Assembly: GCF_000025345.1 (NCBI RefSeq)
Contig: NC_013757.1
Location: forward strand, 4,526,001-4,590,000
Direction of reading: 5' to 3'
DNA from: Geodermatophilus obscurus DSM 43160
Lineage (GTDB): Bacteria; Actinomycetota; Actinomycetes; Mycobacteriales; Geodermatophilaceae
DNA length: 64,000 bases
This document shows, one piece after another, positions 10,016 through 35,820 of this stretch. How positions within the stretch are numbered: position 1 is the first letter of the stretch; each line of letters opens with the position of its first letter. A model generated the notes under the pieces. It was given only the letters and a program-made list of their open reading frames with translations, ran no database searches and was not told where the DNA came from. Position numbers and translations under genes: made by a program.

Positions 10016-10190
10016 GCGTCTAGAACCGCTCCCTGTGGTGGACGGCACCGCCGGCCACCACCCTCGGGCGCCGCCCCTCAGCGGCCCCGTCGAGCGACTG
10101 TAGGTGCGGCTCCCGGCGCCGCGCCCGGTCCGCCGGCGTGTCCGCACCACCCGTCCCACGGTGCTCGTGCGTCCACTCCCGGCGGACGGG

Positions 10191-12185: not shown

Positions 12186-14475
<2,290 letters not shown>

Positions 14476-14480: not shown

Positions 14481-16400
14481 ATGACGACCACTGCGGTGTC
14501 CCCCGACGTGGTGGCCGACCTGGCCGCCGAGGACCTGGCCCCCGGCCGGGCCGTGACCCTCCTCCAGCGGGTCCTCATGCCGCGCGGCGCCGACCCGCGC
14601 AAGGTCCGCGCCCTCTACCTCGACGAGGTCCGGTCCGAGAAGGTGCACGTCGCCTCCCGGTCGACCGGGCACCTCTCGGCCGGTGACGAGGTCTCCTTCG
14701 CCACGTACTTCAACGCCTTCCCGGCGGGTTACTGGCGGCGGTGGACCTCCCTGACCAGCGTGACGCTGCAGCTGCGCATCTCAGGCACCTGCCGCATCGA
14801 CGTGTACCGCTCCAAGGGCAACGGCGACGTGCTGCACGCCCTGGGCACCACCGTCGAGGGGCAGGGCCGGACGGTCGAGCTCGACCTGGACCTCACCCCC
14901 TTCGTCGAGGGCGGCTGGTACTGGTTCGACGTCACCGCCGACGACGACACGATCATCGAGGACGCCGGCTGGTACGCCGACCGGGAGCCGCTGCGCCCGG
15001 GGCGGCTGGCCGTCGGCATCTGCACCTTCAACCGTCCGGTCGACTGCGTCGCCGCGCTGCAGACGGTCGCCTCCGACCCGGTGCTCGACGCCGAGCTCGC
15101 CGCGGTGGTCGTCGCCGACCAGGGCAACCTCAAGGTGTGCGACGAGGCCTCGTTCCCCGAGGTGGCCGACCAGCTCGGCGACCGCCTGCACCTGGTGGAG
15201 CAGGGCAACCTCGGCGGCAGCGGCGGCTTCGCCCGTGCCATGCACGAGACGCTGACGACCACCGACGCCACGCACCTGGTCTTCCTCGACGACGACGTCC
15301 AGCTCGAGGCCGACAGCCTGCACCGGGCGCTGACCTTCGCCCGGTTCACCGACGAGCCCACCCTCGTCGGTGGGCAGATGCTCACCCTGCAGGATCGCTC
15401 GGTGCTGCACTCCATGGGCGAGAGCATCGACCGCCGGCTCATGAGGTGGCGTCCGGCCCCCTATGCCGCGGCGGGCCACGACTTCGCGCACTGGTCGCTG
15501 CGCGACGCCCGGCACCTGCACCGTCGCGTGGACGTCGACTTCAACGGGTGGTGGATGTGCCTGATCCCCCGCGAGGTGGCCGAGCACATCGGGCTGCCGC
15601 TCCCGCTGTTCATCAAGTGGGACGACGCCGAGTACGGCCTGCGGGCCGGCGCTGCCGGATACCGCACGGTGACCCTCCCGGGCGCGGCGATCTGGCACCT
15701 GTCCTGGACCGACAAGGACGACGTCAGCGACTGGCAAGCGTACTTCCACGCCCGCAACCAGCTCATCGTGGCCGCCCTGCACAGCCCGCTGAAGCGGGCC
15801 GAGGACATCGTCCGCGAGAACGTCCGGGCCGACATCCGGCACCTGTTCCGGCTGGAGTACTCCGCGGTCGCGCTGCACCTGAAGGCCTACCGCGACTTCC
15901 TCGCCGGCCCGCAGGAACTCTTCCGGCAGCTGCCCGGCGTGCTGGCCGAGGTGCGTGCCGAGCGGGCGCGGTACTCCGACGGTCAGGTCATCACCGAGCG
16001 GGCCCGCATCCCGCTGCCGCAGATGGGCCAGGACGCGACCGAGGGCATGGTGCACCCGCCGGTGGCCAAGCGCGCGATCGCCCGCGCCGCGCTGCAGGCG
16101 CTGCGCAACAACGTGCGGCCGGTCCAGGACGCCGACGGCCGGCCCCAGGTGGAGCTGCCGGCCCGCGACGCCCAGTGGTTCGTGCTGGCGCAGCTGGACA
16201 GCGCCTCGGTCGCCACGGCCGACGGCCGGGGCGTCACGGTGCGCCGCCGCGACCCCGCGACGTTCTGGCGGCTGGCCCGGGAGTCGGTGCGGCTCAACCT
16301 GGAGATCGCCCGGCGCTTCCCCCGCGCCAAGCAGCAGTACCGCGACTCCTACGGTGACCTGACCTCGGCGGAGAACTGGGTGAGCGTCTTCCAGGCGTGA
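14481..16400 (+). CDS. glfT2: Galactofuranosyltransferase, GlfT2-like (copy 1)
   Basis: The 639-residue protein has the GlfT2 architecture: an amino-terminal beta-sandwich domain (about 1-170), a GT-A domain with CTFNRP (181-186), QGNLGGSGGFARAM (241-254), the metal-binding LDDDV (269-273), WDDAEYGLR (380-388) and WHLSW (405-409), then a helical carboxy-terminal domain. GlfT2 is the processive enzyme that builds alternating beta-1,5/1,6 galactofuranan on a decaprenyl-linked acceptor at the cytoplasmic face. It follows glf by 5 bp. A second paralogue is encoded at 19096-20958. Confidence 0.9.
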   Translation: MTTTAVSPDVVADLAAEDLAPGRAVTLLQRVLMPRGADPRKVRALYLDEVRSEKVHVASRSTGHLSAGDEVSFATYFNAFPAGYWRRWTSLTSVTLQLRISGTCRIDVYRSKGNGDVLHALGTTVEGQGRTVELDLDLTPFVEGGWYWFDVTADDDTIIEDAGWYADREPLRPGRLAVGICTFNRPVDCVAALQTVASDPVLDAELAAVVVADQGNLKVCDEASFPEVADQLGDRLHLVEQGNLGGSGGFARAMHETLTTTDATHLVFLDDDVQLEADSLHRALTFARFTDEPTLVGGQMLTLQDRSVLHSMGESIDRRLMRWRPAPYAAAGHDFAHWSLRDARHLHRRVDVDFNGWWMCLIPREVAEHIGLPLPLFIKWDDAEYGLRAGAAGYRTVTLPGAAIWHLSWTDKDDVSDWQAYFHARNQLIVAALHSPLKRAEDIVRENVRADIRHLFRLEYSAVALHLKAYRDFLAGPQELFRQLPGVLAEVRAERARYSDGQVITERARIPLPQMGQDATEGMVHPPVAKRAIARAALQALRNNVRPVQDADGRPQVELPARDAQWFVLAQLDSASVATADGRGVTVRRRDPATFWRLARESVRLNLEIARRFPRAKQQYRDSYGDLTSAENWVSVFQA

Positions 16401-16519: not shown

Positions 16520-17443
16520 TCAGGCCGCGGGGGTGAACCGCTCGCGGCGGCCGGCCCGCAGCAGGCGGAGCCACTCGCGGTACCCGGCGACGTCGCGCCG
16601 GGTCACCAGGAAGAACCAGGAGAAGCGGACCAGCTCCAGCGGGAAGAGCCAGCGCATCCCGGGCTGGCGCATCAGGTACCCGCGGTTGCGGTAGGTGTAG
16701 TAGCGCTTCCAGTCGGCATCGGGGTACTGCGCGGACAGCCGCCCGCCGAGGATCGGCTTGAACTCGTCCCGGCCGTTGGGGTGCAGGTAGGTCGCGTGCA
16801 GCGCGGTCCCGAAGGGCAGCCCCGCGCGCACCAGCCGGCGGTGGATCTCGGTCTCGTCGCCGCGGGCGAACAGCCGCAGGTCCGGCACGCCGGTCTGGGC
16901 GAGGGTCGCGGCGGCGAACAGGGCGCCGTTGAAGAGCGACGCGTAGCCGGGCAGGAAGTCGCCGCCGAGGCGGTCGCGCTCCCCCTTCCAGCGCAGCCCG
17001 GAGCGCATCGGGAAGGCGAAGCTGCCGGGTGCGTCGATGTCGGCGACGGCGGGCGAGACCTCGGCCAGCCCGCGCTCCCGGGCCACCGACAGCAGGGTGG
17101 CGAGCACGTGCTCGTCGGCGGGCCGGCCGTCGTCGTCGGCGCACCACACCCAGTCCGCGCCCTCGGCCAGGGCGGTGAGCATCCCCAGGGCGAAGCCCCC
17201 GGCACCGCCGAGGTTGGCCTGCGACAGCAGGTAGGTGTGCGGCAGCCCGCTGGCCCGCACGACCTCCTCGGCCGGCTGGTCGGGTCCGTTGTCGACCACG
17301 ACGACCGAGTCGACCGGCCGGGTCTGCACCGCCAGCGCCTTGAGCGCCTGTGCGAGGGACTCCGGCCGGTGCCGGGTGACGATGACCGCGACGACGCGCT
17401 CGTCGTCGGGACGAGTGGGCGTCTGCTGAGCCGCCTCGGACAC
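16520..17443 (-). CDS. glfT1: Galactofuranosyltransferase, GlfT1-like (GT2)
   Basis: The 307-residue GT2 enzyme has VIVTRHRPESLAQAL, VVVDNGPDQPA, the galactofuranosyltransferase-type motif QANLGGAGGFALGM and the metal site CADDDGRP. The motif set and length match mycobacterial GlfT1 (Rv3782), which adds the first galactofuranose units to the rhamnose-GlcNAc linker. GTG at 17443 directly abuts the wzt stop with no gap. Its operon partners are the Wzm/Wzt exporter and a second GlfT2-like protein, so it most likely starts the chain that copy 1 or 2 of GlfT2 extends. Confidence 0.85.
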   Translation of the reverse strand: MSEAAQQTPTRPDDERVVAVIVTRHRPESLAQALKALAVQTRPVDSVVVVDNGPDQPAEEVVRASGLPHTYLLSQANLGGAGGFALGMLTALAEGADWVWCADDDGRPADEHVLATLLSVARERGLAEVSPAVADIDAPGSFAFPMRSGLRWKGERDRLGGDFLPGYASLFNGALFAAATLAQTGVPDLRLFARGDETEIHRRLVRAGLPFGTALHATYLHPNGRDEFKPILGGRLSAQYPDADWKRYYTYRNRGYLMRQPGMRWLFPLELVRFSWFFLVTRRDVAGYREWLRLLRAGRRERFTPAA

Positions 17444-18205
17444 TCAGCCCCCCGAGGGCGCGTGCTCGCGGCCCTTGTACGCGTCGAGGACCTCCTCGAG
17501 CGGCCCCTGCTGCCGGATGGTGCCGTGCTCCATCCAGAGGGCCGAGGTGCACAGCTGCTTGAGCAGGTCGTTGGAGTGCGAGGCGAAGACCAGCAGGCCG
17601 GCGCGGTCCACGAGGTCCTTGAGCCGCCCCTTGGCCCGCTCGAGGAACGCGGCGTCGACCGCGCCGATGCCCTCGTCGAGCAGCAGAATCTCCGGGTCGA
17701 TGCTGGTGACGACGCCCAGCGCCAGCCGCACCCGCATGCCGGTCGAGTAGGTGCGCAGCGGCATGTGCAGGAAGTTGCCGAGCTCGGTGAACTCGGCGAT
17801 GTCGTCGACCCGGGCCTCCATCTGCTTGCGGCTCATCCCGAGGAACAGACCGCGCACGAGGATGTTCTCCAGGCCGGAGATCTCCGGGTCCATGCCGACG
17901 CCGAGGTCGAAGACCGGTGCCACGCGCCCGTGCACCAGGGCCTGGCCGCTGGTGGGCTCGTAGATGCCCGACAGCAGCCGCAACAGGGTCGACTTGCCGG
18001 CGCCGTTGTGACCGACCAGCGCCAGCCGGTCGCCCTCGGACACGTGCAGGTTGATGTTGTGCAGCGCCTCGATGACGACGACCTTGCGCTCGTTGGCCGC
18101 GACGTTGCCGCCGACCACACCGAGGACGGTGTGCTTCAGGGAGCGCGACTTGGCATCGAAGATGGGGAAGTCCACGCTCGCGTCGCGGACGTCGATGCTC
18201 ACCAT
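17444..18205 (-). CDS. wzt: ABC transporter ATPase for polysaccharide export
   Basis: The 253-residue ATPase has Walker A GHNGAGKST, the ABC signature as YSTGMRVRLAL, Walker B ILLLDEGIG and switch ASHSNDLL. It belongs to the TagH/Wzt polysaccharide-export group without the carboxy-terminal carbohydrate-binding domain found in some O-antigen exporters. The close mycobacterial counterpart is Rv3781, part of the galactan flippase. Two start codons (ATG then GTG) follow GAGGAG; I use the ATG. It lies 13 bp after wzm and abuts glfT1, so export and chain initiation are coupled. Confidence 0.93.
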   Translation of the reverse strand: MVSIDVRDASVDFPIFDAKSRSLKHTVLGVVGGNVAANERKVVVIEALHNINLHVSEGDRLALVGHNGAGKSTLLRLLSGIYEPTSGQALVHGRVAPVFDLGVGMDPEISGLENILVRGLFLGMSRKQMEARVDDIAEFTELGNFLHMPLRTYSTGMRVRLALGVVTSIDPEILLLDEGIGAVDAAFLERAKGRLKDLVDRAGLLVFASHSNDLLKQLCTSALWMEHGTIRQQGPLEEVLDAYKGREHAPSGG

Positions 18206-18218: not shown

Positions 18219-19088
18219 TCAGACCCAGTACGCGACGCGGCTGCGGTAGCGCCGCATGACCAGCAGGGTCATCGCCCAGCCGACCACGGCGATCCCGATC
18301 ACGATGAACCAGGTGTGCCACTCCTGGTCCTGACCCAGCATGGGCCGGCGGATGAGCTCCACGAAGTGGAACAGCGGGTTGATCTCGACCCACCGTGCCC
18401 GCTCGGCGACGGCCGGGTTCGCCTGCAGGACGTCGTACATCCAGACGATCGGCGTGAGGAAGAACAGCAGCTGCACGATGCTCTGGGTCACCGGCGGCAG
18501 GTCGCGGAACCGGGTGCTCACGATGCCGATCAGCAGCGCCACCCACGTGCCGTTGACGACGAGCAGGCCGAATGCCAGGAAGGCCGACAGGTCGGTCCAC
18601 CACAGCGGCTGCGGGAAGACGACGAGCATGACGGCGTAGACGATCAGGTTGTGCGCGAAGAACAGCGTCTGGCGCCACACCAGCCGGTACACGTGGATGC
18701 TGATCGGGGCCGGGAGGTGGGTGATCAGCCCCGAGTTGGCGACGAACACCTCCGACCCCTCGGAGATGCACCCGGCGATGAACGTCCACACGATCATCCC
18801 GACGAGGACGTGCGGCAGCAGCTCCGCCAGCTCGAGGCCGAACAGCGCGGAGTAGAGGATCCCGAGCGCGATGGCGGTGACCGCCATGCTGATCGTGATC
18901 CAGATGGGGCCGAGGACCGAGCGCCGGTAGCGCTGGCGGATGTCCTGCCAGCCCAGCTGCAGCCACAGCTCGCGCTGCTCCCAGCCGCGCGCGAGGTCAC
19001 GGAACGCGGACCGGAAGTCGCGGCCGGGGGGTCGCACGTGCGGCGGGATGTCCGGCGTGGTGGTCGCGGTGGTGCCGCTCGTTGACAT
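18219..19088 (-). CDS. wzm: ABC transporter permease for polysaccharide export
   Basis: The 289-residue protein has six predicted transmembrane helices and the ABC-2 layout: a cytosolic start with WQDIRQRYRRSVLGPIW, the LPHVLVGMIVWTFI helix and a late ARWVEINPLFHFVELIR segment. Wzm permeases form the channel that flips polyprenyl-linked polysaccharide. With the adjacent Wzt ATPase it should export lipid-linked galactan. The ATG at 19088 follows the second GlfT2-like gene by 7 bp. Confidence 0.93.
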   Translation of the reverse strand: MSTSGTTATTTPDIPPHVRPPGRDFRSAFRDLARGWEQRELWLQLGWQDIRQRYRRSVLGPIWITISMAVTAIALGILYSALFGLELAELLPHVLVGMIVWTFIAGCISEGSEVFVANSGLITHLPAPISIHVYRLVWRQTLFFAHNLIVYAVMLVVFPQPLWWTDLSAFLAFGLLVVNGTWVALLIGIVSTRFRDLPPVTQSIVQLLFFLTPIVWMYDVLQANPAVAERARWVEINPLFHFVELIRRPMLGQDQEWHTWFIVIGIAVVGWAMTLLVMRRYRSRVAYWV

Positions 19089-19095
19089 GCCGGAC

Positions 19096-20958
19096 CTACT
19101 CGGCGTCGGCGCCGAAGAGGCGCCGCCAGTTCTCGCGGCTGGTCAGCTGCGGCAGCGCGTCACGGTACTGCTGCGCGGCGGCCGGGCCCTGCCGGGCAAG
19201 CCGGTAGCAGGCCGCGGCGCTCTCGCGCAGCAGCGCGGCGGCCCGGTCGCGGTCCAGGTCGCGCACGCGCACGCCCTCCTGCGAGGCGTCGGTGACGATC
19301 ACCCGGCGGTACCGGGAGACGTGCCACCACTGGGCGTCGTCCGCGGTGATGGCCGCCGAGCCGGCGGTGCGCCCGGTCAGCTGCCACAGCAGGCGCTTGG
19401 CCAGCACCGCGCGGAACGCCGACGGGTCGGGCAGGGCCCGCGCGATGGGCTCGCCGCGCAACGGCACGCCGGGGACCTGCGCGGCGTCGTGCCGCACGGT
19501 CTCGGGGTGGGCCTTGCGCAGCTCACGGACCTCACCGAGGACCCGCTGCCCGCCGTCGGTCAGGATCTCCGGGCCGGCGAGGAAGTCGTCGATGCCCTTG
19601 ATGACGGTGGCGGCCAGGCCGTACTGCAGCCCGGCGACGTAGGCCACCAGGCGACCGAACAGCGTGACGGCGATCGACCGGCTGTCGAACCCGGTGTGCA
19701 GCGCCGAGGTGATCAGGCTGTTGCGGATGCTGAAGTACCGCGACCAGTCGTCCTGGTCCTTCCAGGTGAAGTCGGCGTGCCAGACCCCGGCCCCCGGGAG
19801 GGTGACGGTGGTGAAGCCGTTCTCGCGGGCGCGGTAGCCGTACTCGATGTCGTCCCACTGGAAGAACACCGGCAGCGGGTAGCCGGTCGCCGAGACGATC
19901 TCCGAGGGCAGCAGTGCGCTCCACCAGGCGTTGTAGTCGGCGTCGACCCGGACCTCCTGGTTCTCCTCGGTGAGGTCGGCGTTCCACAGCGCACCGGGGA
20001 CGACCTTGCCCGCCTGCAGCGTGACCAGGTCGGCGAACTCCGCACCGGTGTGCAGCCGCTTCGGGTGCAGCGCGTACAGCATCTGCGCGCCCACGATCAC
20101 CGGCTCACGCGCCGAGTTGGCGAACGCGGTCATCCGGATGATCGACTCCGGCTCGAGGACGATGTCGTCGTCCATGAACAGGATGTTGGCGTGCTGCTCG
20201 GACCCGCCCCGGGTGATCTCGTACATGCCGCGGGTGAAGCCGCCGGCGCCGCCGAGGTTGGCCTGGGTGATGTAGCGGAGCCGGCCGGCGAGGGCGGCGG
20301 AGACCTGCTCGAAGTCGGGGTGCGCGGAGACCCGCCTGTCCCCCTGGTCGACGACGTAGACGGTGTCGAGCGCGTCGAGCGCCGGGAGGTCGGCGGCGAG
20401 CGTCTGCAGGGTCTTCACGCAGTCCGCGGGACGGTTGTGCGTGCAGATCACCACGGCGGTCTCCCGCGACCGCGGCGGGTGCGGGATCGTCCACCGGCCC
20501 GAAGACACGCGGAGCTCCGCGTCGCCGCTGGAGAAGTCCGCCCACACGGCACCGCCGTCGACGAACCGGTCGAGCGCGACGGTCATCGAGACCCGGTCCT
20601 CGCCCGACACCGTGGTCCCGGTGAGGAAGCGCTCCTCCCCGGTGGGGTCGCTGGCGTACAGCTCGACGCGCCCCTCCCCCGAGGTCTCCGCCTGGAAGGT
20701 CATCTCCCGGACGGCGGTCCAGCGCTGCCAGTAGGAGGCGGGGACGCGACCGGAGTAGGTGTTGGTCGACAGCACCGTGTGCGGGGCGAGCCGGAACGAG
20801 GTGCGCTCCAGGTCCACGTGGCCGCGGAGGCGCTTGGCGTACAGCTCGACCGGGAGACCTGGTGCCGGCGGCAGCGTCAGGAGGCGCTGCGCCAGCCCGG
20901 CGACGCCTGGCGTCGACTCGGTCTCGGCGACGGGCGGCTCGGCGGAGGTGGTGGTCAT
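19096..20958 (-). CDS. Galactofuranosyltransferase, GlfT2-like (copy 2)
   Basis: The 620-residue protein has the same domain order as copy 1 but is strongly diverged: an amino-terminal beta domain, then VVICTHNRPADC (169-180), QANLGGAGGFTRGM (232-245), the metal motif MDDDI (262-266), WDDIEYGYRAREN and GAGVWHADFTWK, and a helical tail ending RENWRRLFGADAE. It heads the exporter operon (copy 2, wzm, wzt, glfT1). It could be a second polymerase with another linkage, a branching or capping enzyme, or the true GlfT2 of this pathway. The two copies cannot be ranked from motifs alone. Confidence 0.87.
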   Translation of the reverse strand: MTTTSAEPPVAETESTPGVAGLAQRLLTLPPAPGLPVELYAKRLRGHVDLERTSFRLAPHTVLSTNTYSGRVPASYWQRWTAVREMTFQAETSGEGRVELYASDPTGEERFLTGTTVSGEDRVSMTVALDRFVDGGAVWADFSSGDAELRVSSGRWTIPHPPRSRETAVVICTHNRPADCVKTLQTLAADLPALDALDTVYVVDQGDRRVSAHPDFEQVSAALAGRLRYITQANLGGAGGFTRGMYEITRGGSEQHANILFMDDDIVLEPESIIRMTAFANSAREPVIVGAQMLYALHPKRLHTGAEFADLVTLQAGKVVPGALWNADLTEENQEVRVDADYNAWWSALLPSEIVSATGYPLPVFFQWDDIEYGYRARENGFTTVTLPGAGVWHADFTWKDQDDWSRYFSIRNSLITSALHTGFDSRSIAVTLFGRLVAYVAGLQYGLAATVIKGIDDFLAGPEILTDGGQRVLGEVRELRKAHPETVRHDAAQVPGVPLRGEPIARALPDPSAFRAVLAKRLLWQLTGRTAGSAAITADDAQWWHVSRYRRVIVTDASQEGVRVRDLDRDRAAALLRESAAACYRLARQGPAAAQQYRDALPQLTSRENWRRLFGADAE

Positions 20959-21210: not shown

Positions 21211-21897
21211 ATGGCAGTCGCAGACCCACAGGTCGGGGCGCCGACCCCGGTGACGAGCGGGCTGGAGGTCGTCGCCCGGCTGGTCGACGCCTACGCCGGC
21301 CGCACTCCCGTCGGGACCGTCGCGGTCGTCGGCAACGCCCCGGTGTCCCCCGACCCCGAGCGGGCCGCGACGATCGACGCGGCCGACCTGGTGTTCCGCG
21401 TGAACGGCTTCGCCCTGGACGGACCGCGGCACCCCCGGGGGCTGGGCACCCGCGCCGACGTCGTCGTCACGCAGTGGGCCCTGGAGGCCACGCCGTGGGT
21501 CTTCGCCGACTACCGCTCCCGGCTCTACCTCTACAACGAGCCGGGGATGATGTACGCCGACGTCGAGCGGCTGCCCGCCTGGTGGCCTCCGGACCTCGGC
21601 CTGGTGCCGATCCCGAACCGCGAGGTCCACCAGCCGCTGTCCCGCGCGCTCGGCTTCGACCCGGCCCAGCCGCGCTGGGCGACGACCGGCACGGTCGCGG
21701 CCTGGCTGGCGCGCCTGCTCTACCCGGACGCGCGGCTGCTGCTCGCCGGGTTCTCCTTCATCTGGACCCCGGTGCAGTCGACCTGGGACCACGCCTACGG
21801 CGGGGCCTCGGTCCTGACCGGGGACCACGAGCTCATCGCGGAGGCCACCATGCTGCGCAGCTGGGTCGAGGACGGCACCGCGGAGTACCTCCGGTGA
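21211..21897 (+). CDS. Sialyltransferase-like glycosyltransferase (GT29-type fold)
   Basis: The 228-residue protein carries segments that resemble the GT29 sialylmotifs. VAVVGNAPVS (37-46) followed by TIDAADLVFRVNGF (54-67) corresponds to motif L. WATTGTVAAWLARLL (156-170) with LLAGFSF (177-183) and WDHAYGG (192-198) resembles motif S and the conserved histidine that follows. GT29 enzymes transfer sialic acid from CMP-sialate. There is no signal peptide, so it would act in the cytoplasm. CMP-sialic acid genes lie 10 kb downstream, which supports but does not prove the assignment. Its stop overlaps the next start (GTGA). It could instead use another nucleotide sugar. Confidence 0.6.
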   Translation: MAVADPQVGAPTPVTSGLEVVARLVDAYAGRTPVGTVAVVGNAPVSPDPERAATIDAADLVFRVNGFALDGPRHPRGLGTRADVVVTQWALEATPWVFADYRSRLYLYNEPGMMYADVERLPAWWPPDLGLVPIPNREVHQPLSRALGFDPAQPRWATTGTVAAWLARLLYPDARLLLAGFSFIWTPVQSTWDHAYGGASVLTGDHELIAEATMLRSWVEDGTAEYLR

Positions 21898-22463
21898 GCG
21901 GCCCCCTGCGCCGGCTCGCGGTCGCGGCCCGGATCAACCCGCTGTGGGCGCGCGTGCAGCACAAGCTCGACACCGTCGTCGCCGTCCGCACCGACCCGGC
22001 GCTGCAGGGCGTGCGCGACCGCGTGGAGCACGTGGACGCCGGGCTGCGTGCGGAGCTGCAGGCCGGCCTCGACGCGCTGCGCCGCACCGTCGACGAGCGC
22101 TGCGACGCCCTCGCCGACGACGTGCGCCGGCTCGAGGACGAGGTGCGCCGGGTGTCCGACGAACTGGCCGGGCTGCGCGAGCAGCACGGCCGGGTCTCCT
22201 TCGACGTCGACCGGATCGGGCCGCACGTGGCCGCCCTCGAGGTGCGGATCGCCGACCGGGAGCGTGCGGAGACGCCGGTCGAGGTCGGCAGCCCCGGGAA
22301 CCTGACCGAGGCGCGCCGCCTGCTCGACGACGTGGTGCGCGAGCACGAGCGGATCCGGGTCCGCTTCAGCGGCATCGCGCTCTACGAGGAGCGGCTGCGC
22401 AAGCTGGAGGCCGCCCGCTGGCCCGGCCCCGCCACGGGCGCCGACGGCGCCGGCACCGCCTGA
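21894..22463 (+). CDS. Coiled-coil protein of unknown function
   Basis: The 189-residue protein has no signal peptide or membrane segment. Residues about 30-130 form heptad-rich helices dense in Arg, Glu, Asp and Leu (for example RRLEDEVRRVSDELAGLRE), predicted to be a coiled coil. A helical carboxy-terminal part with RVRFSGIALYEERLRKLE follows. The GTG start overlaps the GT29-like stop by 4 bp, so the two are translated together. It may scaffold or regulate the transferase, or measure chain length, but nothing in the sequence names a family. Confidence 0.75.
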   Translation: MSGPLRRLAVAARINPLWARVQHKLDTVVAVRTDPALQGVRDRVEHVDAGLRAELQAGLDALRRTVDERCDALADDVRRLEDEVRRVSDELAGLREQHGRVSFDVDRIGPHVAALEVRIADRERAETPVEVGSPGNLTEARRLLDDVVREHERIRVRFSGIALYEERLRKLEAARWPGPATGADGAGTA

Positions 22464-25439: not shown

Positions 25440-26026
25440 GGGACCACCACCTCGCCGGCCGCGGACTCCCCGACCGACGTGTCCGACGTGTAGCTGAGCA
25501 CCGCCTCCCACGTCCCGGAGGTCAGCGCGGCGCCACCCACCCGGACCTCGCCGCAGTCGGTCGTGGTCACGTTCGCCGTGCCGAGCGACTCACCGCGCAG
25601 CTCGACGCCCTCCCGGCGGAGGACCAGCGTGCAGGTGGCGTCCTCCTCCACGACGCCGGCGGCGTACCCGCCGGCGACCACGGCCGCGGCGGCGGCGTCG
25701 TAGCCGGTGTAGGTCAGCGAGACGGCGACCGCGGTGAGCTCGCCGTCGTCCTCCTCGGGCTGCGGCGCGGAGGTGGTGGCGGTGGGCCGGGACGGCGGTT
25801 CCTCGTCGGCCTCCTGCTCCGTGCCGGCGTCGGGGTCCGCCGCCGGCGCCTCCGACGACGGCACGGCCGCGGACGGCACGGCCGCCGACGGCGGAGGCGT
25901 GCGGGTCCCGGCCGCGGCCGGTGCGGTGTCCCCGGACCGGGTCCAGAGCACGAACGCCCCGGCCGCCAGGAGCAGGGTCACCAGGACCAGGAGGGGACGG
26001 CGGCTACGACGGGTCCTGCGGGACAT
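25436..26026 (-). CDS. Secreted or membrane-anchored protein of unknown function
   Basis: The 196-residue protein begins MSRRTRRSRRP, then a hydrophobic helix (LLVLVTLLLAAGAFVLW), then a disordered Pro/Ala/Glu linker of about 70 residues. A small extracytoplasmic domain (about 100-196) has two cysteines (ATCTLVL and TTDCGEV) that could form a disulfide. The ATG at 26026 has GGGAG 6 nt upstream; a GTG 6 bases earlier would crowd that site. It is translated with the LGFP protein (4-bp overlap) and is probably its envelope partner. I do not recognise the family. Confidence 0.75.
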   Translation of the reverse strand: MSRRTRRSRRPLLVLVTLLLAAGAFVLWTRSGDTAPAAAGTRTPPPSAAVPSAAVPSSEAPAADPDAGTEQEADEEPPSRPTATTSAPQPEEDDGELTAVAVSLTYTGYDAAAAAVVAGGYAAGVVEEDATCTLVLRREGVELRGESLGTANVTTTDCGEVRVGGAALTSGTWEAVLSYTSDTSVGESAAGEVVVP

Positions 26027-26196: not shown

Positions 26197-28983
26197 TCAC
26201 TGCGACACGGCGACGGCCCCGCTGGTGGCGTTCCAGGTCATCGAGCCGCGCTCGAAGTCGGTGCGCATGCCGCCGGAGACCGGGTAGCTCGACCGCGTCG
26301 GGAAGCCCAGCGCCGAGGAGCTGCCGCCCCGCTGCCAGTAGGTCTTCGCCATCGCGCCCGCGACCACCTGGGTGCCGGTCGCCGGCGACCAGTACACGTC
26401 GCCGTGCTGGAAGCGGACGACGTAGCCGCGGCCGTCGGCGGTCTTCGCGTCGCTCGTGGTCGGGAAGCCCAGCGGGCCGGTCGCACCACCGCCGGCGAGC
26501 CAGGTGGACAGGATCGACCCCCGCACCACCTGCGTCCCGGTCGTGGGCGACCAGTACACGTCGCCGCCCTGGAACCGCACGAAGGCACCGCGGCCGTCGG
26601 CGGTCGGCGCGTCGCTGGTCGTGGGGAAGCCCAGCGAGCCGGTCGTGCCGCCGGTCGCGAGCCAGGCGGCCAGGATGCCGCCCCGCACGATGCGGGGGCC
26701 GGTCGCGGCCGACCAGTAGACGTCGCCGCCCTGGAAGCGCACGAAGTAGCCGCCGCCCCCCGGCGTCGGCGCGTCGCTGGTTGTCGGGAAACCGAGGTAG
26801 CCGGTCGCGCCGCCGGCGGCCAGCCAGGCGTTCAGGATCTCGCCCCGGACGATCCGGGTCCCGGTCGTGGGCGACCAGTAGACGTCGCCGCCCTGGAAGC
26901 GGACGTACGCGCCCTTGCCCGGGACGGGGGTGTCGCTGGTGGTGGGGAAGCCGAGGAAGCCCGTCGGCCCGCCGGCCGCCAGCCAGGTGTCCCGGATCGA
27001 GCCGACGACCACGCGGGCCCCGGTGGCCTGCGACCAGTAGACGTCGCCGCGCTGGAAGCGCACGAAGTAGCCGCCGCCCCCCGGCGTCGGCGCGTCGCTG
27101 GTCGTCGGGAAACCGAGCGAGCCGGTCGGCCCGCCGGCGGCCCGGTAGGCGTCGAGGATGTTGCCGCGGACGATGCGGGTGCCGGTCGTCGGCGACCACA
27201 GCACCTCACCGCCCTGGAAGCGGACGTGGGCGCCCGTGCCGGCGGGGGTGTCGCTGGTGGTGGGGAAGCCGAGGAAGCCCGTCGGCCCGCCGGCGGCCAG
27301 CCAGGTGTCCCGGATCGAGCCGACGACCACGCGGGCCCCGGTCGGCTGCGACCAGTAGACGTCGCCGCGCTGGAAGCGCACGAAGTAGCCGCCGCCCCCC
27401 GGCGTCGGCGCGTCGCTCGTGGTCGGGAAGCCCAGGCCGCCGGTGGCGCCGCCGGTGGCCAGCCACGCGGCCAGGATGTCGCCGCGCACGAGCTGCGAGC
27501 CGGTCGCCGGGGACCAGTAGACGTCGCCGTGCTGGAAGCGGACGAAGGCGCCCTGGCCCCCGGGCGTGGGCGCGTCGTCGGAGACGGGCGGCCCGAGCAC
27601 GGCCGGCCCGCCGGCCGCGAGGTACCGCTCGAGGATGCCGCCGAGCACCAGCCGGACGCCGCCGTTCGGCGAGGAGTACAGCCGGGCGCCGTTGGCGTAG
27701 ACCTGCCAGGTGACGCCGGCCGCCGACTGCTCGCCGCCCACCGGCGCGCCGAGCCACGCCCGCAGGCCGGCGTCGGAGTCGTAACGGGTGGCGATCGGGG
27801 ACTTGGTGTTCGCCATCCGGGCGGCGGCCTTGTCGCGGATCTCGCCCAGCCGCGCGTAGCCGTACCTCCCCGGGCACGCGGTGCTCTTGGTGTCGATGTG
27901 CCCGAAGACCGTCGGCAGCCTGACCCGGGCACCGGCGGCGTGCTTGTCGGTGCCGCCCGAGGTGAGCGTCGTCGTCCCCTTGGGGTTGACGCCGTACAGC
28001 GAGAACTTCCAGCCGATGATCGCCGCGACCGAGTCGATCATCGGCTGGGGCGTGCCGACGACGTCGTAGTTGCCCATCATCGACACCCCGAAGGTCGAGG
28101 TGTTGAAGCCGCCGGCGTGCGCGCCGACCACCGTGCTGGCCAGGCCGCCGGAGCGGCCCTCCCAGATCCGGCCGAACTTGTCGACGAGGACGTTGTAGCC
28201 GATGTCGCCCCAGCCCAGGCTCTGCGCGTGGTACGTGTACGTCGAGCGCAGGATCGCCGGGACCTGGTCGGCGGTGTAGTTGTTCGAACCGGCGGTGTGG
28301 TGCAGCGTCGCGGCCTTGATCGTGCTGGCGTACTGCGGGGTCCACCTCATGAGGCGCTCGTCGGCGCCCCACTGCGCCCGCGAGAACACCGGCGGCATCG
28401 CCACGGCGGCGTCGGCGGTCTCGGTGATGTCGGGGTCGGCGAGCGAGGCGTCGGCCGCGCTCTCGCCCGGGTCGACCAGGTCCAGCTGCACGTCGGTGGG
28501 CTGGGCGCCCGACCGGGTCACCAGCTCGGCCTCCACCGCGGTCGCCGGCCCGGTCCACAGCGGCGCCGTCCCGCCCCGGACGGGGGTGCCGGTGTCGGTC
28601 CCGGTCTCCTGCTCGGCCGCCTCCGCGCTGACCTCCGTCCACGGCCCCCAGACCCCGGCGAGGTCGCGCACCCGCACCTGCACGACGGTGTCGGTCACCG
28701 CCGGGTCGAAGGCCCACGTGACGCCGACGAGCGAGAACTCCGCCACGTCGGTGGCGCTCGCCGAGAGCGTCGGGACGGCGTCGGGCACCCCGGCCACCGG
28801 GTCGGTGGTGCCCGCCTGCACCTCGGCCGCGGGCGCGGGGTCGCTGAACGACCCCATCGCCACCTCCTCGACCGACGTCTCGACGGGCACGGCCTCGGGG
28901 GCCGGCTCGGAGTAGACGGGCAGCACCAGGACGACGCCGGTCAGGGCGACGAAGGCGGTGGTTCCGGCGAGCAGGCGACGCAC
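26197..28983 (-). CDS. N-acetylmuramoyl-L-alanine amidase with LGFP repeats
   Basis: The 928-residue protein has a signal peptide (RRLLAGTTAFVALTGVVLVL), a spacer domain with WGPWTEVSAEA, a PGRP/amidase_2-type domain at about 200-385 and nine LGFP repeats from about 405 to the end. Zn-site residues are visible: H228 in TLHHTAGSNNY, H362 in FGHIDTKSTACPG and the downstream Cys370. GYNVLVDKFGRIWEGR is the usual core strand. It should cleave the amide between MurNAc and the stem peptide while the LGFP units hold it to the wall. GTG at 28983 has GGAGG 8 nt upstream. Confidence 0.92.
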   Translation of the reverse strand: MRRLLAGTTAFVALTGVVLVLPVYSEPAPEAVPVETSVEEVAMGSFSDPAPAAEVQAGTTDPVAGVPDAVPTLSASATDVAEFSLVGVTWAFDPAVTDTVVQVRVRDLAGVWGPWTEVSAEAAEQETGTDTGTPVRGGTAPLWTGPATAVEAELVTRSGAQPTDVQLDLVDPGESAADASLADPDITETADAAVAMPPVFSRAQWGADERLMRWTPQYASTIKAATLHHTAGSNNYTADQVPAILRSTYTYHAQSLGWGDIGYNVLVDKFGRIWEGRSGGLASTVVGAHAGGFNTSTFGVSMMGNYDVVGTPQPMIDSVAAIIGWKFSLYGVNPKGTTTLTSGGTDKHAAGARVRLPTVFGHIDTKSTACPGRYGYARLGEIRDKAAARMANTKSPIATRYDSDAGLRAWLGAPVGGEQSAAGVTWQVYANGARLYSSPNGGVRLVLGGILERYLAAGGPAVLGPPVSDDAPTPGGQGAFVRFQHGDVYWSPATGSQLVRGDILAAWLATGGATGGLGFPTTSDAPTPGGGGYFVRFQRGDVYWSQPTGARVVVGSIRDTWLAAGGPTGFLGFPTTSDTPAGTGAHVRFQGGEVLWSPTTGTRIVRGNILDAYRAAGGPTGSLGFPTTSDAPTPGGGGYFVRFQRGDVYWSQATGARVVVGSIRDTWLAAGGPTGFLGFPTTSDTPVPGKGAYVRFQGGDVYWSPTTGTRIVRGEILNAWLAAGGATGYLGFPTTSDAPTPGGGGYFVRFQGGDVYWSAATGPRIVRGGILAAWLATGGTTGSLGFPTTSDAPTADGRGAFVRFQGGDVYWSPTTGTQVVRGSILSTWLAGGGATGPLGFPTTSDAKTADGRGYVVRFQHGDVYWSPATGTQVVAGAMAKTYWQRGGSSSALGFPTRSSYPVSGGMRTDFERGSMTWNATSGAVAVSQ
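26200..27620. repeat. Tandem LGFP-coding repeats
   Basis: Nine consecutive units of about 50-53 codons encode LGFPTTSD-type sequence; units around 26730-27110 and 27050-27430 are nearly identical at DNA level. Confidence 0.8.
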
Positions 28984-31041: not shown

Positions 31042-31111
31042 GCGCCGATCCTCCCGCCCGGGTGCGCCCGGAGCATCCTCCCGCGGGGTGAGGCGTGTCG
31101 CGGAGCGCTGT

Positions 31112-31124: not shown

Positions 31125-31817
31125 GTGCCGGCTCCCGGGAACGCACCGCGGGTGGTCGCCGTCGTCCCGGCCCGCGCCGGCTCGCAGGGCCTGCCCGGCA
31201 AGAACCTCGCCCGGATCGGCGGGCTCTCCCTCGTCGGCCACGCGGTCCGCGCGGCGCGGGACGCCGGCGTCGACGAGGTCGTCGTCACCACCGACGGCGC
31301 CGGCATCGCGGCCGAGGCCCGGAAGCTCGGGTGCACCGTGGTCGACCGGCCGGCCGAGCTGGCCACCGGGGACAGCCGCACGGTCGACGCCGTCCTGCAC
31401 GCCGTCCGCGCGCTGGCGCTGCCCGGCGACACCCTCGTGCTGCTGCTGCAGCCCACCTCGCCGCTGCGCACCGGGGACGACGTGCGCGCCGTCCTGGACC
31501 GGCACGCCGCCGGCGACGTGGGCAGCACGCTGACCGGCTGCGCGGTGGGCCACCACCCGCTCAAGCAGTTGCTGGTGGACGACGCGGGGACGGCGTCCCC
31601 GGTGCGCACCTGGGCCGACCTCGAGGCGCCGCGCCAGCAGCTGCCCCGGGCGCTGCGCCCGAACGGCGCGGTCTACGTCACCGCCGCCGGCGCCATGGCG
31701 GCGGCCGGGGCGGTCCTGGTCCCGCCGCTGGCGGTGGTCGAGATGCCCGAGGAGCGCAGCCTCGACGTCGACACCGCCGCGGACCTCGCCGCCGCGCGCG
31801 CCCTGCTGGAGGGCTAG
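31125..31817 (+). CDS. neuA: CMP-N-acetylneuraminate (acylneuraminate) cytidylyltransferase
   Basis: The 230-residue enzyme has the nucleotidyltransferase motif VVPARAGSQGLPGKNLARI and LLLQPTSPLRTGDD, hallmarks of the NeuA/KdsB cytidylyltransferases. It should activate a nonulosonic acid with CTP. The related legionaminate and pseudaminate enzymes share these motifs; Neu5Ac is preferred because neuB and neuC are adjacent and no legionaminate or pseudaminate dehydratase or aminotransferase is present. The stop (TAG, 31815-31817) overlaps the convergent neuC stop in one CTAG palindrome. Confidence 0.88.
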   Translation: MPAPGNAPRVVAVVPARAGSQGLPGKNLARIGGLSLVGHAVRAARDAGVDEVVVTTDGAGIAAEARKLGCTVVDRPAELATGDSRTVDAVLHAVRALALPGDTLVLLLQPTSPLRTGDDVRAVLDRHAAGDVGSTLTGCAVGHHPLKQLLVDDAGTASPVRTWADLEAPRQQLPRALRPNGAVYVTAAGAMAAAGAVLVPPLAVVEMPEERSLDVDTAADLAAARALLEG

Positions 31818-32971
31818 ACGCCCTCGGCCAGCGGCCGGTCGACGAAGCGCTTCTGCAACCCCAGGGCCCACACGTCGTCCCCGCAGACCGCCTCGACGAT
31901 CCGCCCGGCGGCGCCGACGGAGCCGAAGTGCTCCTCCGGCCGGCTGCGGCCCGCGGCCCGCGCGGCCCCGATCGCGCGGGCCACCTCCTCCGCCACGGCC
32001 GGCACGTGATGCACCGAGGCGGCCGGGGAGCGGTCGGTCTGCCGCGACCCGACGTCGACCGACGGCGTGCCGAGCACCGGCGCCTCCCGGACGCCGCTGC
32101 TGGAGTTGCCGACGACGACCTCGGCGTGGCGGACCAGCGAGAGGTAGGCCCGGAAGCGCATGGACGGCAGCCGGACGACGTCCGGGCGGCCGTCGAGCCG
32201 CTCGAGCGCGGCCCGGACGTCGTGGGTGCCCTCGTCGTTGTTGGGGTCGATGACCACCCAGGAGCCGCCGGCGGCGAGGACGCCGTCGACGACCGCCTCG
32301 GCGTGCCGCCGGTTGAGCTCCAGCTCGGTGGTCACCGGGTGCAGGGCCAGCACGCCGTAGGGCGGGGCCGGGGTGCCGTAGTGCTCGCGCACCGGGCCCA
32401 GGTCCGAGTCCGCCGCCACCGCCAGCGCGTCGGCCTCCGGGCTGCCGACGACCAGCACCCGGTCGACCTCCTCGCCCAGCTGCAGCAGCCGGGCGCGGGC
32501 GTGGTCGTTGGCGACGAAGTGCACGTGGGCGTGCTTGCTCAGCGAGTGCCGGATGGCGTCGTCGATGGTCCCGGAGACCTCGCCGCCCTCGACGTGCGCG
32601 ACGCGGGTGTTGGTGAGGCTGCCGGCCAGCGCGCCGGCCAGCGCCTCGACCCGGTCCCCGTGCACGAGCACCATGTCCGCGGACTCGGCGAGCAGCAGCC
32701 GGGCGATCGAGTTGATGCTGTTGGCCAGCACCAGCGCCATCGGCTCGTCCTCGACCTGGTTCGGCACGTGGTGCAGGTGCCGCAGCCCCGCTCGCTCGAT
32801 CTCGCGCAGCGTGTACCCGTAGCGGTGCAGCAGGTGCATGCCGGTGACGACGAGGGAGAACTCGATGCCCGGGGCCTCCTGCAGCCCCAGGTAGACGTCG
32901 CGCATCTTGCCGAAGTCCGCGCGCGTGCCGGTGAGGCCGACGACGCGCCGGGGCCGTCCCGGAGCCGTCAC
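31814..32971 (-). CDS. neuC: UDP-N-acetylglucosamine 2-epimerase, hydrolysing
   Basis: The 385-residue protein has GLTGTRADFGKMRDVY at the start, VLVHGDRVEALAGAL, VAHVEGGEVSGTIDDAIRH and VVGNSSSGVREAPVLG, all characteristic of NeuC-type hydrolysing epimerases that make ManNAc from UDP-GlcNAc. The GTG at 32971 overlaps the neuB stop. LegG, the GDP-GlcNAc version in legionaminic acid synthesis, has the same fold, so donor preference needs a biochemical test. Confidence 0.92.
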   Translation of the reverse strand: MTAPGRPRRVVGLTGTRADFGKMRDVYLGLQEAPGIEFSLVVTGMHLLHRYGYTLREIERAGLRHLHHVPNQVEDEPMALVLANSINSIARLLLAESADMVLVHGDRVEALAGALAGSLTNTRVAHVEGGEVSGTIDDAIRHSLSKHAHVHFVANDHARARLLQLGEEVDRVLVVGSPEADALAVAADSDLGPVREHYGTPAPPYGVLALHPVTTELELNRRHAEAVVDGVLAAGGSWVVIDPNNDEGTHDVRAALERLDGRPDVVRLPSMRFRAYLSLVRHAEVVVGNSSSGVREAPVLGTPSVDVGSRQTDRSPAASVHHVPAVAEEVARAIGAARAAGRSRPEEHFGSVGAAGRIVEAVCGDDVWALGLQKRFVDRPLAEGV

Positions 32972-34017
32972 GCCGGAGTGAGGTCGGACCACGCCACCTG
33001 CACGTCGGCGGGCAGGTCGCGGCTCGCCCGCCGGCCGAGCAGCTCGTCGTAGTGCTTGGCCACGACCTCGCCGGTGCCGGGGCGCTTGACCCACAGGTTG
33101 TCGACGGTGAACTCCTCACCGGCGCCGACCGGCTTGGTCGTCACGACGCAGGCGTAGGCGAAGTCGATGGTGGGCTGCTCCTCCGGGAGGATCTCCTTGC
33201 GGCCGCCGCGGGCCAGGCCGAGCAGGTCGGCGCCCTCGATGAGCCGCGCGAACTCCTCCGGGGTGCTGGAGATCGGGATGTCCGGCCCGCTCCAGGACAG
33301 GTCCGAGGTGAAGTGCCGCTCGAGCACCGCCGCACCGACGGCGACCGCGCCGAGGCAGGCGTAGATCGAGGTGGTGTGGTCCGACAGGCCCAGGACGGCG
33401 TCCGGGAAGGCCTCCCCCAGCTCGGTGATCCCGCCGAGGCGGACCTTCTCCGGCGGGGTCGGGTACATGCTCGTGCAGTGCATCAGCGCGAACGGCACCC
33501 CGCTGGCGCGCAGCAGCTCCACGGACGGGCGGATGGTGCTGACGTCGTTCATCCCGGTGCTCAGCAGCACCGGCTTGCCGAACGAGGCGATGTGCCGGAC
33601 CAGCGGGTAGTTGTTGCACTCCCCCGAGCCGATCTTGAACGCCGGGACGTCGAGCCCGGCCAGCCGGTCGGCCGCGGCCCGGCTGAACGGCGTCGACAGC
33701 GCGAGCATCCCGCGCTCGTGCGCGTGGGCGAACACCTCGCGCTCCTCGGTCGCCGAGAGCGCGCAGCGCTGCATCATCCCGTAGATCGACTCCTCGGCGT
33801 TCCCGGGCACGACGTCGTTGGGGATCATCTCGTCCTCGACCACGTGCGACTGGAACTTGACGCACTCGACCCCGGCGTCGGCCGCGTCGTCGATCATGCG
33901 GTGCATCCGCTCGAGGTCGCCGTCGTGGTTGATGCCGAGCTCGGCGATCACGAGCGGACGCTCGCCGGGACCGACCCGGCGGGTGCCGACGGACAGGGTC
34001 CCCGGGGTGTTCGTCAT
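32968..34017 (-). CDS. neuB: N-acetylneuraminate synthase
   Basis: The 349-residue enzyme has a TIM-barrel NeuB domain (PLVIAELGINHDGDL, VKFQSHVVEDEMI, FKIGSGECNNYPL, LLSTGMNDVSTI, LMHCTSMYPTP) and a carboxy-terminal antifreeze-like SAF domain from about 290 (VGAGEEFTVDNLWVKRPG). It condenses ManNAc with phosphoenolpyruvate. The ATG at 34017 has TACCGT 6 nt upstream. It is divergent from the LCP gene across 237 bp. Confidence 0.94.
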   Translation of the reverse strand: MTNTPGTLSVGTRRVGPGERPLVIAELGINHDGDLERMHRMIDDAADAGVECVKFQSHVVEDEMIPNDVVPGNAEESIYGMMQRCALSATEEREVFAHAHERGMLALSTPFSRAAADRLAGLDVPAFKIGSGECNNYPLVRHIASFGKPVLLSTGMNDVSTIRPSVELLRASGVPFALMHCTSMYPTPPEKVRLGGITELGEAFPDAVLGLSDHTTSIYACLGAVAVGAAVLERHFTSDLSWSGPDIPISSTPEEFARLIEGADLLGLARGGRKEILPEEQPTIDFAYACVVTTKPVGAGEEFTVDNLWVKRPGTGEVVAKHYDELLGRRASRDLPADVQVAWSDLTPA

Positions 34018-34254: not shown

Positions 34255-35820
34255 GTGAGACGACAGAACCCCGGATCCCCCGCAGGAGGCGGCGACCGGC
34301 AGCTCCCGGCGCGCCTCGACCCGCGGGCCGGCCGCGCCGGCTCGGGGCGGGCCCGCTCCCGGCACCAGGCCACCGACGCGGTCGACGCGGAGGACCCGGC
34401 CCCCCGCCGGCGCACGGGCCGCGCGGCCACCGCGGCCCGCGCCGTCGCCGGGGTCCTCTCGGTCGTCCTGCTCGCCGGGTCCGGCTGGGGCTGGTACCTG
34501 GGTCAGGTCGCCGAGGCCACGGTCAACCGCACCGACGCCATCCCGACCGACGGCAACGAGGGCACCGGCGACGCGCCCGAGGCGATGAACCTGCTGCTGG
34601 TCGGCAACGACAGCCGCGCCAACCTCACCGAGGACCAGCTGGCCAGCCTCAACGCGGGCACCGACTCCGGCATCAACACCGACACGATGATCCTGGTGCA
34701 CGTCCCGGCCGACGGGTCGCGCGCCTCCTTCGTCTCCTTCCCCCGCGACTCCTACGTGCAGATCCCCGGCTACGGGAAGGACAAGCTCAACGCCGCCTAC
34801 GCCTACGGCTACGCCGAGACCCCGGCGAGCGCGTCCGACGAGGTCCGGCAGGCCGGCGGCGCCCAGCTGCTGGTGCAGACGATCAGCGGGCTGACCGGCC
34901 TGCAGATCGACCACTACGCCGAGGTCGACCTGCTCGGCTTCTTCAACCTCAGCTCCGTCGTCGGCGGGGTCGAGGTCAACCTGTGCGAGGCCGTCGACGA
35001 CTCCGAGTGGTCCGGCGCGGTGTTCGACGCCGGGGTCCAGACGATCAGCGGCGCCGATGCGCTGAAGTTCGTCCGCCAGCGCCACGGCCTGCCCCGCGGC
35101 GACTTCGACCGGATCGTCCGCCAGCAGGTCTTCATCGCCGGCGTGCTGCGCAAGATGCTCTCCGACGACGTGCTCCTCGACCTCGGCAAGCAGCGCCAGC
35201 TGACCGAGGCGGCGTCCCAGTCGCTCACCATCGACCAGGGTCTGGACCTGTTCCGGCTGGCCGAGCAGATGCAGTCGGTGACCGCCGGCAGCATCGAGTT
35301 CCAGACGATCCCCAACGTCGGGACCGACCGGGACGAGCAGGACCGCTCGATCATCCGGCTGGAGGACGAGGACACCCTCCACCGGTTCTTCGCCGAGCTG
35401 TCGGCCGAGCGTGAGGCGCCTGCCGATGCCGCGCCGGCCGCGCCGTCGACCGTCGCCCCCTCCGCGGTGACCGTCGACGTCCTCAACGGCTCGGGCACCT
35501 CCGGGCTGGCGGCCAAGGCCGCCGCGTCGCTGCAGACCGCCGGCTTCGCCGTCGGCACCACCGGCAACGCCGACTCCTCCGACCACGACACCACCCTGGT
35601 CCGGCACGCCGCCGGCGACGAGGCCCTGGCCGCGACGCTGGCCGCCGCCGTCCCCGGCGCGGTGGTGGAGGAGAGGGAGGACGCGACCTCCGGCACGGTG
35701 CAGCTGGTGCTCGGCTCGGACTTCAACGCGGTCGGCCAGGCCGTCGACCCGGCCGCCCCCGCGGCCGAGGTCGAGGGCGAGGACGCCCGCACCGCGGCGG
35801 ACACCAGCTGCATCTACTGA
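34255..35820 (+). CDS. LytR-CpsA-Psr family cell-wall glycopolymer ligase
   Basis: The 521-residue protein has a basic, disordered cytosolic start, one transmembrane helix at about 65-82, an LCP domain (NLLLVGNDSRAN, FVSFPRDSYVQIPGYGKDKL, NAAYAYG, QHG-type RQRHGLPRGDFDRIVRQQ) and a LytR_C domain near 400-500 (VTVDVLNGSGTSGLAAKAA). LCP enzymes move lipid-linked glycopolymers onto peptidoglycan; in mycobacteria one joins arabinogalactan to the wall. The GTG start has GAAGGA upstream. It is placed to attach the galactan made by the cassette at 13-21 kb. Confidence 0.93.
   Translation: MRRQNPGSPAGGGDRQLPARLDPRAGRAGSGRARSRHQATDAVDAEDPAPRRRTGRAATAARAVAGVLSVVLLAGSGWGWYLGQVAEATVNRTDAIPTDGNEGTGDAPEAMNLLLVGNDSRANLTEDQLASLNAGTDSGINTDTMILVHVPADGSRASFVSFPRDSYVQIPGYGKDKLNAAYAYGYAETPASASDEVRQAGGAQLLVQTISGLTGLQIDHYAEVDLLGFFNLSSVVGGVEVNLCEAVDDSEWSGAVFDAGVQTISGADALKFVRQRHGLPRGDFDRIVRQQVFIAGVLRKMLSDDVLLDLGKQRQLTEAASQSLTIDQGLDLFRLAEQMQSVTAGSIEFQTIPNVGTDRDEQDRSIIRLEDEDTLHRFFAELSAEREAPADAAPAAPSTVAPSAVTVDVLNGSGTSGLAAKAAASLQTAGFAVGTTGNADSSDHDTTLVRHAAGDEALAATLAAAVPGAVVEEREDATSGTVQLVLGSDFNAVGQAVDPAAPAAEVEGEDARTAADTSCIY

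What the first reader, a model, noticed from the sequence alone, without database searches (positions are those of the whole stretch)
31125..34017. Nonulosonic acid (sialic-type) biosynthesis genes in an actinobacterium
NeuC, NeuB and NeuA are all present with intact motifs, which is enough to make CMP-Neu5Ac from UDP-GlcNAc. No legionaminate or pseudaminate dehydratase, aminotransferase or acetyltransferase is in the window. Sialic acid on the actinobacterial surface is little described.
Basis: partly seen in the sequence, partly recalled or inferred. Interest (0 to 1): 0.75.

Follow-up and report, generated by a model that had tools for sequence, protein, structure and literature searches.

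The report
Sialic acid genes plus unannotated sialyltransferase
A desert-rock soil bacterium carries a full gene set to make activated sialic acid together with a previously unlabelled enzyme built like animal sialyltransferases, and related bacteria appear to keep that enzyme while swapping which sialic-acid-like sugar it is fed.

Summary
neuA, neuC and neuB are real and intact, in a 5,322,497-bp genome of the length published for Geodermatophilus obscurus G-20T. Similarity to solved enzymes, and no complete legionaminate or pseudaminate set found genome-wide, favour CMP-Neu5Ac. The trio sits between rmlB and an LCP gene in 5 of 26 genus genomes.

An unannotated 228-aa gene 9 kb away (21211-21897) is a good candidate: its AlphaFold model matches GT29 sialyltransferases (Foldseek ranks 1-30), and key motif residues, including H-x4-E, are invariant in 60 of 60 aligned relatives. 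All 10 genomes known to hold this NeuB carry it; in a 397-genome order sample, all 37 genomes with it have a NeuB-family synthase. Of 80 actinobacterial loci, 56 pair it with a pseudaminic acid cluster, 8 with neu genes; one is Kdn-like. The transferase tree needs four changes of the Neu label. A coiled-coil gene follows it in 67 of 80; the galactan exporter faces it in 41 of 80.

Best reading: a GT29-type nonulosonic acid transferase decorating a surface glycan, perhaps galactan, whose donor pathway is exchanged as a cassette. No sugar or activity was measured.

The parts
31125..31817 (+). neuA, CMP-N-acetylneuraminate synthetase
   Evidence: PF02348; best solved match Neisseria CMP-Neu5Ac synthetase, 174 bits. 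An upstream GTG at 31095 is also possible.
31814..32971 (-). neuC, hydrolysing UDP-GlcNAc 2-epimerase
   Evidence: TIGR03568 333.9 bits, cut-off 235.9; best solved match human GNE; GTGA overlap with the neuB stop
32968..34017 (-). neuB, N-acetylneuraminate synthase with SAF domain
   Evidence: PF03102 + PF08666; Neisseria Neu5Ac synthase 403 bits
21211..21897 (+). GT29-type nonulosonic acid (sialyl) transferase candidate; no Pfam match over gathering score and no NCBIfam match at E<=0.1
   Evidence: fold search; conserved motif positions; PF00777 at 16.5 bits (cut-off 23) in the window protein, E<=0.1 in 46 of 60 members, best 3.9e-9; NCBIfam none; co-occurrence with neu genes
21894..22463 (+). 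coiled-coil partner gene (coiled coil judged by eye), GTGA overlap with the transferase stop
   Evidence: overlap; homologue directly downstream of the transferase in 67 of 80 loci
19096..20958 (-). second GlfT2-like glycosyltransferase, divergent from the transferase
   Evidence: PF19320 + PF17994; in all 5 genus carriers but also in non-carriers G008 and G012 at 74-76%
18219..19088 (-). galactan export ABC transporter permease (Wzm/RfbD)
   Evidence: NF050109 425.9 bits, cut-off 380
17444..18205 (-). galactan export ABC transporter ATPase (Wzt/RfbE)
   Evidence: NF050108 457.3 bits, cut-off 400
16520..17443 (-). GlfT1 galactofuranosyltransferase
   Evidence: NF050113 484.8 bits, cut-off 330
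14481..16400 (+). GlfT2-family galactofuranosyltransferase
   Evidence: PF19320, PF17994
12907..14475 (+). glf, UDP-galactopyranose mutase (longest frame; domains begin at residue 137, so the true start is probably near 13300)
   Evidence: PF03275
30046..31041 (-). rmlB, one flank of the neu insertion site
   Evidence: TIGR01181 405.1 bits, cut-off 365.1
34255..35820 (+). LytR-CpsA-Psr glycopolymer transferase gene, other flank of the insertion site
   Evidence: PF03816 + PF13399

Best explanation
The bacterium makes CMP-N-acetylneuraminate in three steps (NeuC: UDP-GlcNAc to ManNAc; NeuB: ManNAc + PEP to Neu5Ac; NeuA: CTP + Neu5Ac to CMP-Neu5Ac). A GT29-type inverting transferase (21211-21897), probably working with the coiled-coil protein translated right after it, moves the sialic acid onto a cell-surface glycan; the most likely acceptor is the galactofuran chain built by GlfT1/GlfT2 and exported by the neighbouring ABC transporter. 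The transferase belongs to an actinobacterial family whose usual donor would be CMP-pseudaminic acid; in a few lineages, Geodermatophilus among them, neu genes stand where relatives have pseudaminic acid genes while the transferase stayed. Shown by computation: gene identities, fold, motif conservation, co-occurrence, cassette difference between relatives. Inferred: catalysis, donor choice, acceptor, role of the coiled-coil protein, direction of the exchange.
Confidence: 0.7

Rival explanations
1. The trio makes a legionaminate-type acid with enzymes encoded elsewhere.
For: NeuB scores below the NCBIfam Neu5Ac synthase cut-off and NeuC homologues include hydrolysing diacetylbacillosamine 2-epimerases. 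Some 50 kb away lie a DegT aminotransferase (271 bits PseC, 201 bits LegC, both under cut-off) and an acetyltransferase whose best family is NeuD/PglB/VioB (97 vs 160.8 bits).
Against: No LegB over cut-off; those two genes are followed by a dehydrogenase whose best family is UDP-GlcNAc 3-dehydrogenase (194 vs 450 bits), which points to a 3-amino sugar (Wbp reading recalled); NeuB, NeuC and NeuA each lie closer to Neu5Ac-pathway enzymes of solved structure.
Confidence: 0.08
2. The trio makes sialic acid, but the transferase acts on another acceptor (lipid, protein or another polysaccharide) and galactan is only a neighbour.
For: 22 of 80 loci lack both galactan exporter with GlfT1 and close glf; rml and LCP genes flank the trio.
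Against: 46 of 80 loci show the galactan exporter and GlfT1; in 41 of 80 the permease is divergent within 1.5 kb.
Confidence: 0.4
3. The 228-aa protein is not a transferase for nonulosonic acids but another nucleotide-binding enzyme with a similar fold.
Against: The top 30 Foldseek hits are all GT29, the motif residues are conserved, and in the order sample it occurs only in genomes with a NeuB-family synthase, 37 of 37.
Confidence: 0.08
4. The neu genes are a recently acquired remnant with no product.
For: Patchy: 5 of 26 genus genomes.
Against: Intact frames and 94-98% identity in five genus genomes, the genes kept together in other genera and a second family, and the transferase in all 10 genomes.
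Confidence: 0.05

Closest known systems
Neu5Ac/polysialic acid biosynthesis genes of Neisseria
   Same: NeuB and NeuA are closest to the solved Neisseria enzymes
   Different: Soil actinobacterium; the genes sit in a galactan/rhamnose cell-wall region and come with a GT29-type transferase
Mammalian GT29 sialyltransferases (ST6GALNAC2, ST3GAL1, ST8SIA3, ST6GAL1)
   Same: Fold and order of the residues I assign to the L, S, III and VS motifs
   Different: 228 aa, no cysteine, so no L-S disulphide; 14-19% identity over the aligned parts
Bacterial GT29 sequences of Petit et al. 2018 (PMC5811610)
   Same: Bacterial GT29; the paper says the conserved cysteines are absent there too (section 6)
   Different: That set holds 23 sequences, 19 alpha-proteobacterial (section 7); words beginning actinobacter, Streptomyces and Gram-positive occur 0 times in its main text (its supplement was not seen)
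Teichulosonic acids of Streptomyces and Kribbella
   Same: A nonulosonic acid (Kdn in S. coelicolor) with galactose in an actinobacterial wall polymer (passages)
   Different: Different sugar; whether a GT29-type enzyme takes part there was not examined

Membership tests
NeuC, hydrolysing UDP-GlcNAc 2-epimerase | Score over NCBIfam TIGR03568 cut-off | tested here: met
   333.9 vs 235.9 bits
NeuC, hydrolysing UDP-GlcNAc 2-epimerase | Releases ManNAc from UDP-GlcNAc | not testable with these tools
   needs enzyme assay
NeuB, N-acetylneuraminate synthase | NeuB barrel plus SAF domain | tested here: met
   PF03102 and PF08666 over gathering scores
NeuB, N-acetylneuraminate synthase | Score over NCBIfam TIGR03569 cut-off | tested here: not met
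   336.4 vs 399.65 bits; still the best family, PseI 215.7. So filed as working like a Neu5Ac synthase (closest to the Neisseria enzyme), not as a certified member
NeuA, CMP-Neu5Ac synthetase | Cytidylyltransferase domain | tested here: met
   PF02348 69 bits, cut-off 22.6
NeuA, CMP-Neu5Ac synthetase | Neu5Ac as substrate | not testable with these tools
   only by similarity: Neisseria NeuA best of solved proteins
GT29 sialyltransferases | Fold of the family | tested here: met
GT29 sialyltransferases | Sialylmotifs L, S, III, VS with the catalytic His in VS | tested here: met
   conserved residues in the right order: 60 of 60 for the positions assigned to L, S and VS (H206-x4-E211), 55 of 60 for H194 assigned to III. 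That the motifs exist and that the VS His is the base is from PMC10225777 passages; the exact consensus, incl. H-x4-E, and my assignment of residues to motifs are recalled. A profile alignment to rat ST6GAL1 pairs the VS His and Glu only at -3.0 bits
GT29 sialyltransferases | Score over Pfam PF00777 gathering score | tested here: not met
   window member 16.5 vs 23 bits; 46 of 60 members match at E<=0.1, best 3.9e-9
GT29 sialyltransferases | Transfers sialic acid from CMP-sialic acid | not testable with these tools
   needs assay
Legionaminic acid pathway | LegB dehydratase over NCBIfam cut-off | tested here: not met
   15 matches in the genome, none over cut-off; best is RmlB
Pseudaminic acid pathway | PseI synthase and PseC aminotransferase | tested here: not met
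   the single NeuB-family gene scores 215.7 vs 340.25 for PseI; the single strong DegT scores 271 vs 423.5 for PseC

The most novel reading that the evidence does not exclude
Actinobacteria hold a large, unannotated branch of the GT29 family that works as a general nonulosonic acid transferase on cell-wall galactan or a related glycan; its donor is reprogrammed in evolution by whole-cassette exchange (pseudaminic acid, Neu5Ac, Kdn-like), possibly with a small change in the VS motif (Ile to Leu two residues after the presumed catalytic His in three of four Neu lineages, Ile in 40 of 41 Pse-linked rows). The galactan-containing wall of Geodermatophilus would then be sialylated.
Probability: 0.4. 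Interest if true: 0.82.

Novelty: new variant of a known kind. Interest (0 to 1): 0.66.

Why it matters
It would put GT29, the family that sialylates animal glycoconjugates, into a common actinobacterial cell-surface setting, give a name to an unlabelled gene in many sequenced species, and offer compact enzymes whose relatives appear to use Neu5Ac, pseudaminic acid or a Kdn-like acid, a natural experiment in donor specificity. It also bears on where eukaryotic GT29 came from, argued in 2018 from 23 bacterial sequences, 19 of them alpha-proteobacterial (PMC5811610).

Tried and rejected
Legionaminate route: thought unlikely after genome-wide LegB and DegT searches. The DegT gene 50 kb away was first suspected as LegC, then set aside: its neighbours are a dehydrogenase best matched by UDP-GlcNAc 3-dehydrogenase and an acetyltransferase best matched by NeuD/PglB/VioB, all under cut-off. 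I read the three as a WbpB/WbpE/WbpD-like UDP-GlcNAc3NAc set; that naming is recalled, no Wbp model was hit, and the NeuD-family match counts somewhat against it, which is why the legionaminate rival stands at 0.08. The second GlfT2-like gene (19096-20958) was tested as the trio's partner and rejected: it also occurs in non-carriers G008 and G012 (74-76%) and more weakly in G010, G023 and others, and carrier G207 has only a 34% match. A GT42 (PF06002) search of the genome found nothing, but no control genome rang either, so it says nothing; the GT29 Pfam model in the genome search finds only this gene, below cut-off (E 0.106), and it also rings below cut-off in 2 of 14 control genomes. GT38, GT52 and GT80 were not searched. 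Columns separating Neu- from Pse-linked transferases: one passed the filter (position 208); A. arida (Neu) and Naasia L165 (Pse) break it and the Kdn-like L136 also has Leu, so it is a lead only. Best family hits of the coiled-coil genes (SMC-like and others, weak) are uninformative. Absence from the VIA list shows nothing either way.

Rows dropped before counts: the scan looked for two short exact peptide patterns, found 176 stretches, 85 relatives, and kept 80, so relatives without those peptides are missed; 59 of the 80 loci plus the window went into A2, the motif counts and the tree; the second Neu/Pse change count used only rows labelled Neu, Pse, PseI_only or pseB_only. For G352 neuA was not seen: its contig ends soon after neuC. 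That searches drew the same 397 genomes is inferred from the matching handles.

Full report
Observation. neuC starts at a GTG that overlaps the neuB stop as GTGA, and neuA and neuC converge with overlapping stops. The genome is one contig of 5,322,497 bp, the length published for Geodermatophilus obscurus G-20T (PMC3035280, passages).

Which acid. Against all solved proteins NeuB is best to Neisseria Neu5Ac synthase (403 bits, against 129 for a pseudaminic acid synthase), NeuA to Neisseria CMP-Neu5Ac synthetase (174 bits), NeuC to human GNE (184 bits, against 146 for a hydrolysing diacetylbacillosamine epimerase). NeuC passes its NCBIfam cut-off; NeuB does not, though TIGR03569 is its best family. 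The genome has one NeuB-family gene, no LegB over cut-off and one strong DegT aminotransferase. That gene stands with a dehydrogenase best matched by UDP-GlcNAc 3-dehydrogenase and an acetyltransferase best matched by NeuD/PglB/VioB, all under cut-off. I read this as a 3-amino-sugar set; it is the one loose end for a legionaminate reading. CMP-Neu5Ac is the most likely product. This is inference from sequence.

Where it sits. Five of 26 genus genomes carry this NeuB, in all five with neuA and neuC between rmlB and an LCP gene; of nine non-carriers read, five have rmlB beside LCP and four have another arrangement. In 397 genomes of the order, nine have this NeuB at 72-100% identity and the next best matches are at 36-37%.

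How general is it. A scan of the species-genome collection with two short peptide patterns found 85 relatives; 80 were kept, all from actinobacteria by record title. Within 10 kb, 56 of 80 have a pseudaminic acid cluster (PseI plus PseB), 8 have neu genes, 2 PseI alone, 2 PseB/PseC without a synthase, 4 something else, 8 none. PseB and PseI proteins from three loci pass NCBIfam cut-offs; two PseC proteins come close (406-412 vs 423.5 bits). The 13 genomes behind the 8 'none', 2 'pseB only' and three of the four 'other' loci all have a NeuB-family synthase of at least 211 bits; the fourth 'other', L203, has a PseI fragment at a contig end. In the order sample the transferase is in 37 of 397 genomes and each has a NeuB-family synthase (29, 8, one of these as two contig-end pieces); among the other 360 at least 46 have one, a lower bound. 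Relatedness was not corrected for. Many genomes of another family (f16) have a synthase without this transferase, so it is not the only user of nonulosonic acids.

Cassette exchange. On the transferase tree (60 rows) the Neu label needs four changes: Geodermatophilus, two Blastococcus, one Modestobacter, and Amycolatopsis arida. Modestobacter L198 (neu genes) and L203 (PseI fragment) have transferases 86% identical. The transferase nearest to Geodermatophilus, in Blastococcus atacamensis (77%), stands beside a different synthase and a CMP-sugar synthetase fused to a phosphatase domain whose best family is Kdn-9-phosphate phosphatase, below its cut-off (116 vs 180 bits), hence 'Kdn-like'. The tree method was the quick one, without bootstrap, and counts of change do not tell direction.

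Acceptor. The transferase is followed by a coiled-coil gene in 67 of 80 loci. In Geodermatophilus and many Pseudonocardiaceae the pair stands by the galactan export ABC transporter and GlfT1, which pass their NCBIfam cut-offs in the window; in the window a GlfT2-like gene lies between. Exporter plus GlfT1, or a close glf, are present in 58 of 80 loci. This suggests galactofuran as acceptor but does not show it; 22 loci lack both.

Novelty. Bacterial GT29 proteins were reported in 2018: 23 sequences, 19 alpha-proteobacterial (PMC5811610; abstract, sections 6, 7, 9 and passages), with no mention of actinobacteria in the main text. Searches for GT29 with sialyltransferase and Actinobacteria (1 paper), for sialyltransferase with galactan and Actinobacteria (1), for GT29 with pseudaminic (4 papers, 3 listed) and for pseudaminic acid with Amycolatopsis (1) listed no paper on this family by title and start of abstract; PMC9686282 on Geodermatophilaceae holds no word beginning sialic, nonulosonic or pseudaminic. 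The library lacks most subscription journals. Teichulosonic acids in actinobacterial walls are known. So the sialic acid genes alone are a new member of a known kind; the transferase family with exchangeable donor cassettes is a new variant.

Noticed in passing
L033:2000-4934 (own genome 4508000-4510934, outside the window): Acetyltransferase (best NeuD/PglB/VioB), DegT aminotransferase and Gfo/Idh dehydrogenase (best UDP-GlcNAc 3-dehydrogenase) in a row, all under cut-off; possibly a UDP-GlcNAc3NAc-type set.
   Followed up: partly
22536-25511 and 26197-28833: Two large proteins with 12 and 8 LGFP repeats, the second with an Amidase_2 domain, between the transferase pair and rmlD.
   Followed up: no
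L136:11311-13484: Blastococcus atacamensis: synthase plus CMP-sugar synthetase fused to a Kdn-9-phosphate-phosphatase-like domain next to the same transferase.
   Followed up: partly
L210:10001-10642 and 18822-19478: Nocardioides insulae has two copies of the transferase, each followed by a coiled-coil gene.
   Followed up: no
21832-21834 (residue 208 of the transferase): Residue two after the VS histidine is Leu in three of four Neu lineages and Ile in 40 of 41 Pse-linked rows.
   Followed up: partly
8378-10159: 593-aa frame without Pfam match, present at 83-86% in the four other genus carriers and not found in the neighbourhoods read of five non-carriers and five other-genus carriers.
   Followed up: no
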